Source: Hydrogenophaga sp. IBVHS2
GTDB taxonomy: Bacteria > Pseudomonadota > Gammaproteobacteria > Burkholderiales > Burkholderiaceae_C
Reading direction: 5' to 3'
DNA: 64,000 nucleotides
Assembly: GCF_002127215.1 (NCBI RefSeq)
Contig: NZ_NFUT01000001.1
Coordinates: forward strand, 620,001 to 684,000
Part shown: positions 33,720 to 39,989 of the stretch, piece by piece
Layout of the letters: each line of letters starts with the position of its first letter
How positions within the stretch are numbered: position 1 is the stretch's first letter
Position numbers and translations under genes: made by a program
Notes under the pieces: model-generated
The model's input: only the letters and a program-made list of their open reading frames with translations
Told to the model about the DNA's origin: nothing
Databases searched by the model: none

Positions 33720-34685
33720 ATGACCGACAAGACCATCAAAGTGGCACTGGCCGGTGCCGGCGCCTTCGGCATCAAGCACCTGGACGGCATCCGGAACATT
33801 CCGGGCGTTGAGGTGATTTCCCTCATCGGCCGCGAGCTCGACAAGACCCGCGAGGTGGCCGCCAAGTACGGCATCGGCCATGTGACCACCGAGCTGTCGG
33901 AGTCGCTGGCCATGGCCGAGCTGGACGCCGTCATCCTGTGCACCCCCACCCAGATGCATGCGGAGCAGAGCGTGGCCTGTCTGAAGGCCGGCAAGCATGT
34001 GCAGGTGGAGATTCCGCTGGCCGACAGCCTGGCCGGCGCGCAGGCCGTGGTCGACCTGCAGAAGCAGACCGGTCTGGTGGCCATGTGCGGCCACACCCGC
34101 CGCTTCAACCCCAGCCACCAGTACGTGCACCAGCGCATCCAGCGCGGCGAGTTCCACATCCAGCAGATGGATGTGCAGACCTATTTCTTCCGCCGCACCA
34201 ACACCAACGCCCTGGGCCAGCCGCGCAGCTGGACCGACCACCTGCTGTGGCACCACGCCGCGCACACGGTCGATCTGTTTGCCTACCAGTGCAACAGCCC
34301 CATCGTGGCGGCGCACGCCATGCAGGGGCCGATCCACCCCGTGCTGGGCATTGCCATGGACATGAGCATCCAGCTCAAGGCGGCCAACGGGGCCATCTGC
34401 ACGCTCTCGCTGAGCTTCAACAACGACGGCCCGTTGGGCACCTTCTTCCGCTACATCGGTGATACCGCGACCTACATCGCGCGGTACGACGATCTGTTCA
34501 CCGGCAAGGACGAGAAGATCGATGTGAGCCAGGTGGACGTGAGCATGAACGGCATCGAACTGCAGGACCGCGAGTTCTTCGCCGCCATCCGTGAAGGCCG
34601 TGAGCCCAACGCCAGCGTGGGCCGCGTCTTCGACTGCTATCGGGTGCTCCACGAGCTGGAGCGGCAGCTGGCCGCGCAGGGCTGA
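33720..34685 (+). CDS. ligC: 4-carboxy-2-hydroxymuconate-6-semialdehyde dehydrogenase
   Basis: 321 residues, GFO/IDH/MocA family. Rossmann motif VALAGAGAFGIKHLDGI at 8-24, then the CTPTQMHAEQSVACLKAGKHVQVEIPLADS region (residues about 77-105) with the conserved EIP. The C-terminal alpha/beta domain contains WTDHLLWHHAAHTVDLF near 172. LigC oxidises the hemiacetal of the semialdehyde to 2-pyrone-4,6-dicarboxylate with NADP. Last gene of the operon; no strong terminator follows before the convergent small gene. Confidence 0.93.
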   Translation: MTDKTIKVALAGAGAFGIKHLDGIRNIPGVEVISLIGRELDKTREVAAKYGIGHVTTELSESLAMAELDAVILCTPTQMHAEQSVACLKAGKHVQVEIPLADSLAGAQAVVDLQKQTGLVAMCGHTRRFNPSHQYVHQRIQRGEFHIQQMDVQTYFFRRTNTNALGQPRSWTDHLLWHHAAHTVDLFAYQCNSPIVAAHAMQGPIHPVLGIAMDMSIQLKAANGAICTLSLSFNNDGPLGTFFRYIGDTATYIARYDDLFTGKDEKIDVSQVDVSMNGIELQDREFFAAIREGREPNASVGRVFDCYRVLHELERQLAAQG

Positions 34686-34695
34686 GGGCGCCGGT

Positions 34696-35091
34696 TCAGA
34701 GCAGCCCCAGGGCGCCGAGGGCCACCATCACCGCCACGGCGGTCAGGCTGCTGTCGTGCAAGCCGCCGTCCGAGGTGTTGGCGGGCGGGTGGGGCAGGGG
34801 GCCGGAAGACGGGACGCTCGATGGGTGGCCGTGACCGACGCTCCACGCCGCCGCCACAACGCCTGCCGCGATGAGGGTGGCCGATGCCGCCATGAACAGG
34901 CTCTCGGCCCTGGGCATCGACGGCACCCAGGCGGTCCCGCTGCCGGTGGCTGGCAGACCGTCGTCGGGCGTGCCGAAGGTCCCGGTTGCCTGATGCTGCC
35001 CGGGGGCCGGTTCCGCCGGAAGGGGCGTTCCGGTGCCGGGGTGGTCGGCTTGCAGGCGCGTGTCGTTTCGGGAGAGGCTGTTGCTGAGCAT
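34696..35091 (-). CDS. small two-hydrophobic-segment protein A, putative type III-secreted
   Basis: 131 residues from the ATG at 35091, chosen because AAAGAGAA lies just upstream and the distance to the hrp-box-like promoter (54 nt) equals that of its partner at 36788-37141. An ATG at 35124 is the alternative. Layout: polar Ser/Thr/Pro/Gly-rich N-terminus (1-62), hydrophobic segment 64-85 (SLFMAASATLIAAGVVAAAW), a GHGHP and Pro/Ser linker, and a second segment 114-131 ending ALGALGLL at the stop. No cleavable signal peptide. Partner B has the same plan and the same ALGLL end. No family recognised. A membrane-inserting type III substrate is inferred from layout, promoter and the nearby SycD-like chaperone. 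Confidence 0.6.
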   Translation of the reverse strand: MLSNSLSRNDTRLQADHPGTGTPLPAEPAPGQHQATGTFGTPDDGLPATGSGTAWVPSMPRAESLFMAASATLIAAGVVAAAWSVGHGHPSSVPSSGPLPHPPANTSDGGLHDSSLTAVAVMVALGALGLL

Positions 35092-35145
35092 GGGATTCTC
35101 TTTCTCGGGTGATGGATGGTTCATGGTGTTGACCATGGACGGTCC

Positions 35146-35173
35146 TGAGTGCAATCCCCGCCGCCCCGGTTCC
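35146..35173 (-). promoter_or_regulatory. hrp-box-like promoter of small protein A
   Basis: On the minus strand GGAACC (35168-35173), a 15-nt spacer and GCACTCA (35146-35152) match the HrpL consensus GGAACC-N15/16-CCACNNA except for the first C of the second element. The 3' end lies 54 nt before the ATG at 35091. Confidence 0.55.
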
Positions 35174-35224
35174 CTCCATCGAAGCGCCGGATAATCCGGC
35201 CCGGTCTGTCCCCTCGTTCCTGCC

Positions 35225-36226
35225 ATGCAACATCGATCCCTCGGTCCCTTCCGCGTCTCGGCCATCGGCCTGGGCTGCATGAACATCTGCCACGCCTATG
35301 GCGCGCCGGTCTCCGAGGCCGAGGTCGAGCGCCTGCTGCTGACCGCCCTGGACCATGGCGTGACGCATTTCGACACCGCGGCGCTGTACGGCTTCGGTGC
35401 CAGCGAGCGCGCGGTGGGTCGGGTGCTGTCGGCCCACCGCAGCCGCTTCACGCTGGCCAGCAAGTGCGGCATGCAGGGGGTGGACATCCAGGGTGACGGC
35501 CAGCTGGTGCGGGTGATCGATGGTCGTCCCGAAACCCTGCGCGCCACCTGCGAGGCTGCCCTGCAGCGCCTGCGCACCGACGTGATCGACCTCTATTACC
35601 TGCACCGCTGGGACCGGCAGGTGCCGATCGAAGACAGCGTGGGCGCCCTGGCCGATCTGGTGCAGGCCGGCAAGATCCGGGCCATCGGTCTGAGCGAGGT
35701 GTCGGCCCCCACCCTGCGCCGCGCGCATGCGGTGCACCCCATCGCCGCGTTGCAGACCGAGTACTCGCTCTGGACCCGCAACCCCGAGATCGCGGTGCTG
35801 CAGGCCTGCCGCGAGCTGGGCGTGGGTTTCGTGGCCTTCAGTCCGCTGGGCCGGGGCTTTCTGGCAGGCCCGGTGGATCCGGCCACCTTCGACGCCAAGG
35901 ACATCCGGCGCAGCATGCCGCGCTTCCAGGGCGAGCACTGGACCGCCAACCAGGCACTGCTGGCGGACTACCGCCAGCTGGCCGCCGAGGCGGGGTGCTC
36001 ACCGTCGCAGCTGGCCCTGGCGTGGCTGCTGCACCGGGGCAGCGACATCCTGCCGATCCCCGGCACCGCCCGGGTGGATCACCTGCTGGACAACCTGGGC
36101 GCCGATGGGGTGGCCTTGAGCGCCGGTCTGCTGGAGCGCCTGGAAGCGCTGTTCGGCCCTGGTGCGATCCGTGGCGACCGTTACGGCGAGCAGGCCCGAG
36201 CCGAGGTGGACACCGAGACCGTGTAG
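35225..36226 (+). CDS. aldo/keto reductase
   Basis: 333 residues, (beta/alpha)8 barrel. Motifs: GLGCMNICHAYGAP at 17-30, the catalytic Asp-Tyr pair in FDTAALYGFGASE near 49-61, catalytic Lys in TLASKCGMQG near 79-88, DLYYLHRWD near 121, and the NADP site LPIPGTARVDHLLDN near 278. The family reduces aldehydes and ketones with NADPH; the AKR12/13-like overall pattern does not fix the substrate. It lies between the two parts of the putative secretion module but on the opposite strand, so a functional link is not implied. Its stop is 6 bp from the chaperone stop. Confidence 0.9.
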   Translation: MQHRSLGPFRVSAIGLGCMNICHAYGAPVSEAEVERLLLTALDHGVTHFDTAALYGFGASERAVGRVLSAHRSRFTLASKCGMQGVDIQGDGQLVRVIDGRPETLRATCEAALQRLRTDVIDLYYLHRWDRQVPIEDSVGALADLVQAGKIRAIGLSEVSAPTLRRAHAVHPIAALQTEYSLWTRNPEIAVLQACRELGVGFVAFSPLGRGFLAGPVDPATFDAKDIRRSMPRFQGEHWTANQALLADYRQLAAEAGCSPSQLALAWLLHRGSDILPIPGTARVDHLLDNLGADGVALSAGLLERLEALFGPGAIRGDRYGEQARAEVDTETV

Positions 36227-36232
36227 GCCGGC

Positions 36233-36763
36233 TCAGCGCCGCAGCCGGTCGGCCAGGTGCGCCGCCGCGCTCTGCAGATGCCGGTGGGACGGATCGCTGC
36301 GTGAGATCTCCACGCAGGCATCCAGGCATTGCAGGGCTTCATCCCGGTGCCCGGTTGCCAGCAGGCATTCGCCCAGGCGCAGCAGCGGGCCCGGGCCCGG
36401 GTGGTCGCCCTGGTGCATCAGGCAATGCGTGAAGGCCGGCAGGGCCTCGGCGGGGCGCCCCATGCGTTGCAGGCAGGTGCCCAGCCGGTACGACGCCGAG
36501 GGGTCGCATGGCGCTGCCAGCAGCAGCCGGGTGGCCAATGGCAGGGCCTGCGACCAGCGGGCCTGCTCCATGAGCAGGTCCGCGGCGGTCTTGAGCGCGG
36601 CAATGTCGTCGGGCTGCTCCTGCGACCCCTGCAGGGTCTCCATCAGCCGCTCCTGCACATCCGATGCCGACCGTGCCGTGCCGACGAGCCCGTCGAGCTG
36701 CTCGCGCGACCGTTCGATCAGATGGCGCAGGTCGGGGTCCGGGGGAAGGTGGTGGTCGATCAC
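36233..36763 (-). CDS. SycD/LcrH-like TPR chaperone (type III secretion class II type)
   Basis: 176 residues from a GTG with AGGTGA upstream. Three TPR-like repeats: about 53-86 (DIAALKTAADLLMEQARWSQ...), 87-120 (YRLGTCLQRMGRPAEALPAF) and 121-155 (LLRLGECLLATGHRDEALQC). The spacing and the G-x-C-x-Q-x-MG and ECLL..G..EA patterns follow the SycD/LcrH/IpgC family, which holds hydrophobic translocators before secretion. The first 50 residues form a helical N-terminus, as in that family. It starts 24 bp after small gene B and should be co-transcribed with it. General TPR proteins cannot be excluded; no apparatus gene is nearby. Confidence 0.65.
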   Translation of the reverse strand: MIDHHLPPDPDLRHLIERSREQLDGLVGTARSASDVQERLMETLQGSQEQPDDIAALKTAADLLMEQARWSQALPLATRLLLAAPCDPSASYRLGTCLQRMGRPAEALPAFTHCLMHQGDHPGPGPLLRLGECLLATGHRDEALQCLDACVEISRSDPSHRHLQSAAAHLADRLRR

Positions 36764-36787
36764 AGGTCACCTGGCAGGACCGGGATG

Positions 36788-37141
36788 TCACAACAGGCCC
36801 AGTGCCGACAGGGCGGCTCCCAGGGCCAGCGCGGCGAGCGCGTCGGGCGTGGCGGCAGGACTGGCGGTGGCATTGGCGTGGCCGGCCGGGGCTGTCGCAA
36901 GCGCCACGGCGCCGGCGATCACGCCGAGCACCGAGCACACGATGCCGCAGACCAGGGGCACGATTTCTCCACAGGCTTCGCCGGTGTAGCCGTCGAGCGC
37001 GGTGGCGGGCGATCCGGACCCGGTGGTGACCACCGATCCTTCGGCCGGCTGTTGGCGATCGTCATTCGATCCTGAGGCGTTCGTCATGGGTGAATGACTC
37101 GAGAAAGTGCTCGCGCTGACACCATTGCTGGCAGCGATCAT
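36788..37141 (-). CDS. small two-hydrophobic-segment protein B, putative type III-secreted
   Basis: 117 residues; the ATG follows AGGAGA at ideal spacing. Layout: Ser/Thr/Asn/Gly-rich N-terminus (1-57, starting MIAASNGVSASTFSSHSPM), hydrophobic segment 60-84 (IVPLVCGIVCSVLGVIAGAV) with three Cys nearby (57, 65, 69), an AGHANATASPAATP linker and a second segment 101-117 ending ALSALGLL at the stop. It shares this layout, the GH after segment 1 and the ALGLL end with protein A. The SycD-like chaperone gene follows 24 bp later. Such a bilobed hydrophobic region recalls type III-secreted Inc proteins and small translocators; this is inference, with no recognised family. Confidence 0.62.
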   Translation of the reverse strand: MIAASNGVSASTFSSHSPMTNASGSNDDRQQPAEGSVVTTGSGSPATALDGYTGEACGEIVPLVCGIVCSVLGVIAGAVALATAPAGHANATASPAATPDALAALALGAALSALGLL

Positions 37142-37166
37142 GGTTGTTCTCCTGAGAGGGTTTCAA

Positions 37167-37196
37167 GGGCAGGTCAGCAGTGGCACTGACCAGCCC
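37167..37196 (-). other. leader hairpin upstream of small protein B
   Basis: GGGCAGGTCAG (37167-37177) pairs with CTGACCAGCCC (37186-37196) with one mismatch around an 8-nt loop. It lies between the hrp-box-like promoter and the ribosome site of gene B and would sit at the very 5' end of the message, where it could protect the RNA or modulate its translation. Confidence 0.45.
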
Positions 37197-37225
37197 TGGG
37201 TGGCAGTTTTCGAGGCCTCCGTTCC
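37197..37225 (-). promoter_or_regulatory. hrp-box-like promoter of small protein B and the chaperone
   Basis: On the minus strand GGAACG (37220-37225), a 16-nt spacer and CCACCCA (37197-37203) match GGAACC-N15/16-CCACNNA with one mismatch, the last C of the first element. Its 3' end is 55 nt before the ATG at 37141, nearly the same as at gene A. Confidence 0.6.
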
Positions 37226-37339: not shown

Positions 37340-39691
37340 TCAGAGCGAGTCGATGAAGCTGCGCAGCTTGTCGCTGCGGCTGGGGTGCTTGAGCTTGCGC
37401 ACCGCCTTGCTCTCGATCTGGCGGATGCGCTCGCGCGTCACGTCGAACTGCTTGCCTACCTCTTCCAGCGTATGGTCGGTGGACATCTCGATGCCGAAGC
37501 GCATGCGCAGCACCTTGGCTTCACGCGGCGTGAGGCTGTCGAGAATTTCCTTCACCACTTCGCGCAGGCCGGCCTGCATCGCGGCCTCGATGGGCGCGGT
37601 GTTCGCCTGGTCTTCAATGAAGTCGCCCAGGTGCGAATCGTCGTCGTCGCCGATCGGGGTTTCCATCGAGATCGGCTCTTTCGCGATCTTCATGATCTTG
37701 CGGATCTTGTCCTCAGGCATCTCCATCTTCTCGGCCAGGATGGAGGCATCCGGCTCGAAACCGAACTCCTGCAGATGCTGGCGCGAGATGCGGTTCATCT
37801 TGTTGATGGTTTCGATCATGTGCACCGGGATCCGGATGGTGCGCGCCTGATCGGCAATGGAGCGCGTGATGGCCTGGCGAATCCACCAGGTGGCGTAGGT
37901 CGAAAACTTGTAGCCGCGGCGGTATTCGAACTTGTCCACCGCCTTCATCAGGCCGATGTTGCCTTCCTGGATCAGGTCCAGGAACTGCAGGCCGCGGTTG
38001 GTGTATTTCTTGGCGATGGAGATCACCAGGCGCAGGTTGGCCTCGATCATTTCCTTCTTGGCATCGCGCGAGGTGGACTCACCCTGGTTCATCCGCTTGT
38101 TGATGTCCTTCAGATGCGTCAGAGGCACCACCACGCTGCTCTGGATGTTCATCAGGCCCTGCTGCAGCTCCTGGATCGGCGGGATGTTGCGCTCCATCAC
38201 CACGCTCCACGATTTGCCGGAGGCGGCCTGCTTCTCGACCCACTTCAGGTTGAGCAGGTTGGCCGGGAACTCGGCAATGAACTTCTCCTGCGGCATGCCG
38301 CACTTGTCCACGATGATGCGGCGCAGCTCGCGCTCCTTCTTGCGCACCTCGTCGACCTGGGTGCGCAGCGTGCTGCACAGCTTCTCGATGGCCTTGGCGG
38401 TGAAGCGGATGGTCATCAGCTTCTCGGTCAGGGCCTGCTGGGTCTTGATGTAGTTGGCGCTGCCGTAGCCTTCCTTGTCGTAGATCTTGTGCAGCTTCTC
38501 GAACAGGGCGCGCATGGCATCGAAGCGCTCCAGTGCCTCGCGCTTGAGTTCCTCGAGCTTGCGGGTCAGGGCCTTGGAGCCGCCCTTGCCATCGTCGTCG
38601 TCGGCCTCGTCGTAGTCGTCGAAGTCTTCCTCGGCCACGTAGTCGTCGGCCTCGTCGGCGTCGGCAAAGCCGTCCACCACCGTGGAGATGACGACCTTGC
38701 CTTCGCGGATCTCCTCGGCCATGGTGAGGATCTCGGCGATGGTGGCCGGGCTCTCGCTGATGGCGGCCATCATGTCGTTGAGGCCGCCCTCGATGCGCTT
38801 GGCGATCTCGATCTCGCCCTCGCGGGTCAGCAGTTCCACCGTGCCCATCTCGCGCATGTACATGCGCACCGGGTCGGTGGTGCGGCCGAATTCGCTGTCC
38901 ACGGTGGACAGGGCGGCTTCGGCTTCCTCTTCCGCTTCCTCTTCGGTGGCGGCGGTCGGGCCGGTGTTGTTCAGCAGCAGGGTTTCGGCATCCGGCGTCT
39001 GCTCGTAGACGGCCACACCCATGTCGTTGAGCAGCGAGACCACCACTTCCAGGGTCTCGGCCTCGACCAGCTTGTCGGGCAGGTGGTCGTTGATCTCGCC
39101 GTGGGTCAGGTAGCCGCGGGTCTTGCCCAGCTTGATCAGGGTCTTGAGGCGTTCGCGCCGGCTGCGGGCTTCCTCTTCGGACAGGACGGTCTCGTCCAGG
39201 CCGAATTCCTTCATCAGCGCGCGCTCCTTGGCCTTGCTGATCTTCATGCGCAGCGGCTTGGCCTTCTCGGTCGGCTGTGCGTCGCCGGTGGAGACTTCCT
39301 CCACCACCTCCTCGGCCAGGTCCTCTTCAATGTCGCTCAGGTCGGCATCGTCCAGATCGCTGGCTTCCTTGGCGGCGGCCTTGGGCTTGCGGCCGCGTTT
39401 GGCGGCCGGCTTGTCGGCGGCCGGTGCGGCGGCCTTGGCCGGGCGGCCAGGCTTCTTTTTGGCGGCCGGTGCCGCCGCTTCGTCCAGCAGGGTGTCTTCC
39501 ACCACCTCGGCCTTGGCCTTGGCGGCCTTCGTGGTCTTGGCGGGGGCGGCCTTGGCCGCAGCCTTGGCAGGGGGTTTCGTCGTCACAGCAGATGCTTTCT
39601 TCGGCGGGGTTGCCGGGGCTGCCGCAGCAGAGGCCTTGCGGGCGGGCTTGGGGCTGGCAACGACGGGCGTACTGGACTTCTTCGCGGGCAT
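37340..39691 (-). CDS. rpoD: primary sigma factor RpoD (sigma-70)
   Basis: 783 residues from the ATG at 39691, which has TGAGGTG in front; an in-frame GTG two codons earlier is inside that ribosome site. Residues 1-150 are a Lys/Ala/Pro-rich, then acidic extension with AT-hook-like KKPGRPAK and KRGRKPK. Next are region 1.1, region 1.2 ([19 protein letters not shown]), a non-conserved region with an acidic [10 protein letters not shown] run, regions 2.3-2.4 ([20 protein letters not shown]), region 3 and region 4.2 ([20 protein letters not shown]). It directs RNA polymerase to housekeeping promoters. The gene stands alone downstream of dnaG, with its own terminator. Confidence 0.98.
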
Positions 39692-39989
39692 GGGCACCTC
39701 AAAAAAACGTCAACGGGAACCGGGAAACACAGACCTCAAACGCCGGCAGGACCGCCAATGCGGACTTGTCAGGGATGGGGTTGAAACAGGGGCGACCCCC
39801 ATGGACCGGCGCGAACCGGAGCAGGCGGGTCTGCAAGCTGGTGGGCGATCATTTGGTGTGCAGTCCTTGCGGGGAGTGCCGGGGCCCGTGGGGCGCCCGG
39901 TTGGCCAGGAGGGTCTTCCATGCAGCCCGTATCAGGGGCCAGGCCGTTGCCGGAGGTGCTGCTGTCGCGCTTGCGGTGCAAGCTGTGGA
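39692..39989. other. intergenic region between dnaG and rpoD
   Basis: About 300 bp without a convincing gene. Short frames on both strands lack start signals. The rpoD promoter should lie here on the minus strand, but I could not single out a good -35/-10 pair, and I saw no strong terminator for dnaG. A run of seven A (T on the rpoD strand) lies just upstream of the rpoD ribosome site. Confidence 0.6.

What the first reader, a model, noticed from the sequence alone, without database searches (positions are those of the whole stretch)
34696..37225. Putative HrpL-controlled module: SycD-like chaperone plus two small bilobed hydrophobic proteins, without a secretion apparatus nearby
Three facts converge. 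A SycD/LcrH-like three-TPR protein (36233-36763) follows a 117-residue protein with two hydrophobic segments. A second protein of the same plan lies at 34696-35091. Both small genes have hrp-box-like promoters. SycD-family chaperones hold hydrophobic translocators in type III secretion. No apparatus or effector gene is near, so this may be a detached chaperone-cargo set of undescribed type. Membrane insertion in a host or rival cell is inference.
Basis: partly seen in the sequence, partly recalled or inferred. Interest (0 to 1): 0.85.

Follow-up and report, generated by a model that had tools for sequence, protein, structure and literature searches.

The report
Leftover chaperone-cargo genes of lost injectisome
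This stretch of a Hydrogenophaga-like genome holds a chaperone gene and two small membrane-protein genes that look like outlying parts of a molecular-syringe system, and the genome elsewhere bears the scar where the syringe itself was deleted.

Summary
Genes A (34696-35091), TPR (36233-36763) and B (36788-37141) are real, all on the minus strand; B and TPR look like one operon. Both small genes carry hrp-box-like promoters (2 in the window, 0.21 expected), also present in a relative.

The TPR protein's best family is SycD/LcrH (E 1e-17, but 64 bits against a cut-off of 105). 11 of 15 loci of relatives outside the genus lie among type III genes (my reading).

The missing apparatus has an explanation. 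A same-genus genome (G012) has a type III island at a site this genome shares. Here about 29.3 kb, from inside sctN to the last codons of sctF, are gone, including sctV, the HrpL-like sigma gene and translocators. Stumps remain. So the module is an outlying part of a type III regulon, orphaned by a deletion.

Similar detached pairs occur in 8 of 67 genus genomes, 6 without SctV.

Unexpected: at least seven genomes keep an intact SctN C-terminal stump cut at the same codon. Unexplained.

Secretion, chaperone binding and expression are inferred.

The parts
34696..35091 (-). Gene A, 131-aa small protein with two hydrophobic segments (residues 61-88, 109-131), end ALGALGLL
   Evidence: ORF, hydropathy; one relative at 95% (P0015); no Pfam or NCBIfam hit
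35145..35173 (-). hrp-box-like promoter of A: GGAACC-N15-GCACTCAG (one mismatch to CCAC)
   Evidence: counterpart at the A position in G025
36233..36763 (-). SycD/LcrH-like TPR chaperone gene, 176 aa
   Evidence: TIGR02552 E 1e-17, 64 bits, cut-off 104.8; up to three TPR stretches; homologues in G025 and G012 at the same site
36788..37141 (-). Gene B, 117-aa small protein with a strong (53-90) and a weak (93-111) hydrophobic segment, end ALSALGLL
   Evidence: ORF; three proteins in the protein search, 99, 90 and 38% identical; G025 homologue at same site, 57%; no significant Pfam or NCBIfam hit
37167..37196 (-). hairpin in the leader of B, between the box and the start codon
   Evidence: fold z -3.2; similar hairpin with changed pairs in G025, z -3.4
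37196..37225 (-). hrp-box-like promoter of B: GGAACG-N16-CCACCCAG
   Evidence: in G025 at the same distance from the gene
35225..36226 (+). aldo/keto reductase-like gene between A and the TPR gene (flank, not part of the module; name from my reading)
   Evidence: ORF; conserved in G025 and G012
37340..39697 (-). rpoD, flank of the module in G000, G025 and G012
   Evidence: ORF; sigma-70 match

Best explanation
The module is an outlying part of a type III secretion regulon: a SycD/LcrH-like class II chaperone (TPR protein) and two small hydrophobic cargo proteins (A, B), read from HrpL-type promoters. In the ancestor the ECF sigma encoded in the type III island would have switched them on; the chaperone would have held B, and perhaps A, soluble and handed them to the injectisome for insertion in a target membrane. 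In this genome the island was removed by a deletion of about 29.3 kb, from inside sctN to the end of sctF, which took SctV, the sigma gene, the SycD and the translocators. The module is therefore orphaned: its frames are intact and were constrained since the split from G025 (an average, not dated against the loss), but its likely activator and exporter are gone. Shown: genes, promoter matches and their presence in a relative, SycD kinship, scar. Inferred: chaperone binding, secretion, that this sigma reads these boxes, timing.
For: SycD kinship: TIGR02552 is the best family for the window protein and for the other Hydrogenophaga copies scanned (6 of 6: L076, L078, L079, L081, L055, L006; the copies in L007, L077 and L080 were not scanned); the SycD inside G012's island scores only 50 bits. 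At family level 11 of 399 genomes match, G000 among them, and 9 of the 10 others have SctV over the cut-off; 11 of the 15 loci fetched lie among type III genes (translocators, tip-like proteins, SctN, SctJ) by my reading. Scar: the match to G012's sctN ends at C10:48564 and that to its sctF begins at C10:77888, and the two meet at G000:C1:153895-153898. Flanks are 83-91% identical in long blocks, 67-78% over the two regulator genes next to the scar. The scar frame reads the SctN C-terminus, and the bases after it the last codons of SctF. G012's sigma gene (C10:67880-68590) lies inside the lost stretch. dN/dS G000-G025: TPR 0.42 (0.29-0.61), B 0.48 (0.30-0.73).
Against: The TPR protein is below the curated SycD cut-off (64 against 104.8), while 5 of 8 family-level type III chaperones scanned pass it. 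A and B have no profile match and no PxLxxP motif. No exact hrp box was found in the 40 kb scanned around G012's island (L048, L049), so the sigma-promoter match is by analogy with Pseudomonas HrpL. Four genomes at least 99% complete have such pairs but no SctV over the cut-off (G061, G031, G071, G073), so pairs may serve without an injectisome; G061 does have a second FHIPEP gene below the cut-off (538 bits), not resolved here. Assembly 93.4% complete; beyond FHIPEP and sigma factors no other type III family was searched in it.
Confidence: 0.68

Rival explanations
1. The pairs no longer depend on an injectisome and are exported by the flagellar type III apparatus, with the SycD-like protein as cytosolic chaperone.
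For: All 8 genomes with clear pairs have an FHIPEP match in the score range of FlhA (only G000's was checked against the FlhA model). In G061 one pair lies directly beside a gene that I read as fliE. Four genomes at least 99% complete keep pairs without SctV over the cut-off. Flagellar export of non-flagellar proteins is reported for Campylobacter (search listing only).
Against: 56 of 67 genus genomes have an FHIPEP match at all, so co-occurrence says little. One pair is flagellum-linked; the window's is not (FlhA is on contig C6). hrp-type boxes argue for an injectisome regulon.
Confidence: 0.12
2. The pairs act inside the producing cell: a small membrane protein and a TPR partner that controls it, like a toxin with its guard, unrelated to secretion today.
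For: Pairs persist in near-complete genomes without SctV over the cut-off; cargo varies while the TPR partner is kept; A and B are tiny for translocators.
Against: SycD/LcrH is the best family of the TPR partners scanned; hrp-type boxes; type III relics elsewhere in pair genomes (sctN stumps in G000, G025, G061; relatives of the island's response regulator in G073, G071) and an HrpL-like sigma gene beside the G031 pair.
Confidence: 0.12
3. A working injectisome is encoded by this strain but was not assembled (93.4% complete).
For: Completeness below 100%; hrp boxes intact.
Against: The island's home site is assembled within a 983-kb contig and carries deletion stumps; a relative (G025) has a deletion that starts within about two bases of the same sctN position.
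Confidence: 0.05
4. Ordinary TPR protein beside unrelated small hydrophobic ORFs, with chance promoter matches.
For: TPR proteins are common; motif not enriched genome-wide; PxLxxP absent; general and engineered TPR proteins outscore PcrH and SycD in the PDB search.
Against: Gene order, boxes and hairpin shared with G025; TPR-hydrophobic pairing repeated at unrelated sites; dN/dS below 1.
Confidence: 0.03

Closest known systems
SycD/LcrH/PcrH/IpgC class II translocator chaperones (TIGR02552; structures 2xcb PcrH, 2vgx SycD)
   Same: TPR repeats, about 120 aligned residues, cargo gene next door with hydrophobic segments; best NCBIfam family; PcrH, AcrH and SycD among the PDB matches of the profile (E 2.5e-5, 0.03, 0.08)
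   Different: Score under the curated cut-off; in the PDB search several engineered TPR and PPR proteins rank above PcrH; no canonical translocator beside it; detached from any apparatus; cargo lacks PxLxxP
HrpL (hrp-box) regulons of Pseudomonas; xGGAACx-N15/16-CCACxxAG, 30-300 bp before the gene (PMC6647874, passages read)
   Same: Box, spacing and distance from the gene fit B; A has one mismatch
   Different: No close HrpL-like sigma gene was found in the genome
Translocators of the YopB/YopD, IpaB, PopB/PopD type (SctE/SctB)
   Same: Two hydrophobic segments and a SycD-like partner
   Different: A and B are 131 and 117 aa, no profile match, no chaperone-binding motif

Membership tests
SycD/LcrH class II chaperones | Best-scoring family and score over the curated cut-off | tested here: inconclusive
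   Best family, E 1e-17, but 64.1 against 104.8 bits. Of 8 chaperones from family-level type III loci 5 pass the cut-off; three do not (102.7, 70.4, 63.0), nor does the SycD of G012's island (50.3), so the cut-off misses some
SycD/LcrH class II chaperones | Three TPRs plus a C-terminal helix | tested here: inconclusive
   Up to three TPR stretches in Pfam; fold could not be predicted, tool switched off
SycD/LcrH class II chaperones | Hydrophobic cargo gene adjacent | tested here: met
   B, 24 bp upstream; same layout in other Hydrogenophaga pairs
SycD/LcrH class II chaperones | Binds cargo, keeps it soluble | not testable with these tools
   needs pull-down
Type III translocators (SctE/SctB) | Profile match and PxLxxP chaperone-binding motif | tested here: not met
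   No match; no PxLxxP in A or B; 4 of 11 cargo proteins have it, where shuffles of the same 11 give 1.5 on average (rates 0.02-0.31)
HrpL regulon | hrp box before the gene | tested here: met
   B full match, A one mismatch; present in G025
HrpL regulon | HrpL-type ECF sigma in the genome | tested here: not met
   Best hit in G000 is a general ECF sigma, RpoE-like, 4.7e-24, against 4.5e-132 in G012 (part of the query) and 9e-57 in G076
Functional type III secretion system | SctV in the genome | tested here: not met
   The one FHIPEP gene is FlhA; island deleted, stumps left

The most novel reading that the evidence does not exclude
In Hydrogenophaga, type III islands are apparently removed again and again from one fixed codon inside sctN, leaving an intact free-standing SctN C-terminal domain, while detached SycD-like chaperone/hydrophobic-cargo pairs stay under selection. 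Stump and pairs could be a reduced secretion-derived machinery with a new job, for example docking chaperoned cargo onto the flagellar exporter.
Probability: 0.07. Interest if true: 0.88.

Novelty: new variant of a known kind. Interest (0 to 1): 0.56.

Why it matters
It shows, at base level, what is left of a type III regulon after the machine is deleted: chaperone, cargo and promoters at a distant site stay intact. Similar pairs in near-complete genomes without SctV make it testable whether SycD-like chaperones can serve without an injectisome. The repeated sctN breakpoint with a conserved stump is a puzzle of its own.

Tried and rejected
General TPR protein: rejected because SycD/LcrH is the best family of the window protein and of the copies scanned, and because the wider relatives lie mostly among type III genes. 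The tree holds only SycD-like proteins, so it does not test this.

Apparatus unassembled: largely rejected, the island's home site is assembled and scarred.

Chaperone-binding motif as support: failed for A and B.

Motif enrichment genome-wide: failed, 19 against 32 in the reversed control; position and presence in G025 carry the argument.

hrp boxes in G012's island: none exact in L048 and L049 (the first 2.5 kb of the island, in L126, were not scanned). G012's own cargo gene at the rpoD site has a related but degenerate stretch, GCAAC-N19-ACCCAGG, by my reading.

Tree: rows G344_iso and G465_T3 were wrong-strand ORFs picked by my script (branches over 4); their places mean nothing. The labels T3SS_operon and isolated are mine, from neighbours. 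Three type III-labelled rows (G012_T3SS_SycD, G479_T3c, G455_T3b) fall on the window's side, so type III chaperones do not form one group there.

Weak genus hits G082 and G011 (E 3.6e-8, 1.9e-7) were left out of the 8 pair genomes; I did not look at their neighbours. The family search scored only the 8 best candidates per genome, so 11 of 399 is a lower bound. The sigma search scored 42 of 52 candidates in G000; one search scored all 44 of its own. The stump search scored 5 candidates per genome, so seven is a lower bound.

Papers: Hydrogenophaga with type III secretion, 15 papers listed, none on a Hydrogenophaga injectisome by title or abstract start; Hydrogenophaga with injectisome, 0; orphan translocator chaperone with TPR, 0; loss of T3SS with orphan effector, 2, on type VI systems by their listing; T3SS remnants with hrcN, 5 listed, not read. 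PMC6647874 and PMC3443056: passages read. All others: listing only.
Full report
What is there. The window is bases 620001-684000 of contig C1 of a 3.17-Mb, 7-contig assembly, 93.4% complete. The genus is very probably Hydrogenophaga: the same-genus genome G012 has a contig of the same length (95703) and the same 50% hit as record NZ_OY288135.1, a MAG of uncultured Hydrogenophaga. On the minus strand lie rpoD, then B (36788-37141) and the TPR gene (36233-36763), 24 bp apart, then, past an aldo/keto reductase-like gene on the plus strand, A (34696-35091).

Promoters. Both small genes have a box of the published form xGGAACx-N15/16-CCACxxAG (PMC6647874, passages read): B fully, A with one mismatch. 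Two matches in the window against 0.21 expected. Genome-wide the shorter pattern is not enriched (19 against 32 reversed), but by a crude gene caller A's and B's copies are the only ones outside other genes. In G025 the box before B stands at the same -84, with a diverged spacer, and a box stands at the A position. A leader hairpin before B is matched in G025 with changed pairs (z -3.2 and -3.4).

The TPR protein. SycD/LcrH is its best NCBIfam family (64 bits, cut-off 104.8). Six other Hydrogenophaga copies scanned also have it as best (41-65 bits), as does the SycD of G012's island (50 bits). Of 8 chaperones from family-level type III loci, 5 pass the cut-off. At family level 10 of the other 398 genomes drawn match at 1e-12, and 9 of these 10 have SctV over its cut-off; 11 of 15 loci lie among type III genes, 4 are isolated (L128-L131), by my reading. 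In a tree the window protein joins metagenome and Hydrogenophaga proteins (10 rows, 100/99). Nine type III-labelled rows, one of them a wrong-strand error, lie on the other side of a weak fork (77/91), and three more lie on the window's side.

The genus pattern. Of 67 genus genomes, 10 match the TPR profile at 1e-6, 8 of them at 4e-16 or better: G000, G025, G012, G061 (2 copies), G031, G076, G073 (several), G071. Next to the TPR genes of these 8 stands a cargo gene with a polar N-terminus and, usually, two late hydrophobic segments. G012's cargo is a 215-aa protein at the rpoD site, G071's segments are weak, and one G073 copy looks broken. SctV over the cut-off occurs in 3 of 67 (G012, G034, G076), so 6 of the 8 pair genomes lack it, four of them at least 99% complete. 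G061 and G076 each have a further FHIPEP gene below the cut-off (538 and 542 bits) that I did not resolve.

The lost island. In G012 a type III island lies on contig C10. Flanks match G000 contig C1 in a nearly unbroken series: C10:31001-48564 to C1:137066-153898, and C10:78015-98681 to C1:153984-174656. What lies between in G012, about 29.3 kb up to the end of sctF, is absent in G000. The 85 bases in its place begin with the end of sctF: C10:77888-77929 matches C1:153895-153936 at 90%, while the left match ends inside sctN. The frame C1:153507-153956 (-) is the C-terminus of SctN. The lost part held SctV, a SycD, translocators (my reading) and the HrpL-like ECF sigma gene. G025 has a deletion that starts within about two bases of the same sctN position, ends in the response-regulator gene and fuses the two in frame. 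No close HrpL-like sigma was found in G000.

Selection. Between G000 and G025 dN/dS is 0.42 (TPR) and 0.48 (B), both with bootstrap ranges under 1, against 0.18 for the aldo/keto reductase-like gene and 0.07 for the oxidoreductase-like gene at 33720-34685. The pair evolves fast but is constrained on average since that split; this does not date the constraint against the loss. At the A position G025 has two frames split by a stop, which may be decay or two genes.

How it would work. Inferred: the island's sigma factor turns on A and B-TPR, the TPR protein holds the hydrophobic cargo, the injectisome delivers it to a membrane. In this genome sigma and injectisome are gone, so the module is orphaned, probably recently, since it is intact. 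Not shown: binding, secretion, target, expression.

Unexplained. At least seven genomes (G000, G025, G063, G081, G021, G027, G061) keep a SctN C-terminal stump of about 130 codons that starts at the same YTVLVEGDD codon. The right-hand ends differ: sctF in G000, the regulator gene in G025, an earlier place in G063, nearly one place in G027 and G061; those of G081 and G021 were not placed. Some losses may therefore be shared. Two sites are involved: G012 is intact at one, and G076 at the other, if its two contigs C27 and C13 belong together. From that codon to the stop all seven stumps are open, and among the five of the second site dN/dS is 0.04-0.20; whether they have start codons was not tested. 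Either the stump is in use or this spot is a deletion hotspot. Three of the seven also carry TPR pairs (G000, G025, G061).

Noticed in passing
outside the window: G000:C1:153507-153956; L155; L156-L160: Free-standing SctN C-terminal stumps in at least 7 genomes, cut at the same codon, with differing right-hand ends; open frames, low dN/dS. Mechanism unknown.
   Followed up: partly
L155 (G025:C25): In-frame fusion of the N-terminal part of a NarL-type response regulator with the SctN C-terminus, 288 codons, open.
   Followed up: partly
window 37167-37196 (-): Stable hairpin in the leader of B, matched in G025 with changed pairs; a weaker one in the leader of A (z -2.0).
   Followed up: partly
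L055 8900-11667 (G031): TPR gene, 311-aa cargo and an HrpL-like ECF sigma gene side by side in a 99% complete genome without SctV over the cut-off.
   Followed up: partly
L076 8816-10640 (G061): A chaperone-cargo pair directly beside a fliE-like gene (read from its translation), about 22 kb from an flhA-range gene.
   Followed up: no
G061:C37:1187-3211, G076:C14:1544-3568: Further FHIPEP genes below the SctV cut-off (538 and 542 bits); flagellar or not was not settled.
   Followed up: no
G001:C1:2070698, G032:C77:189862: HrpL-like ECF sigma genes (4e-40, 6e-41) in genomes without SctV over the cut-off or TPR pair.
   Followed up: no
G034:C20:57771-59786: A different type III locus (SctV 44% to G012's) in the same genus.
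   Followed up: no
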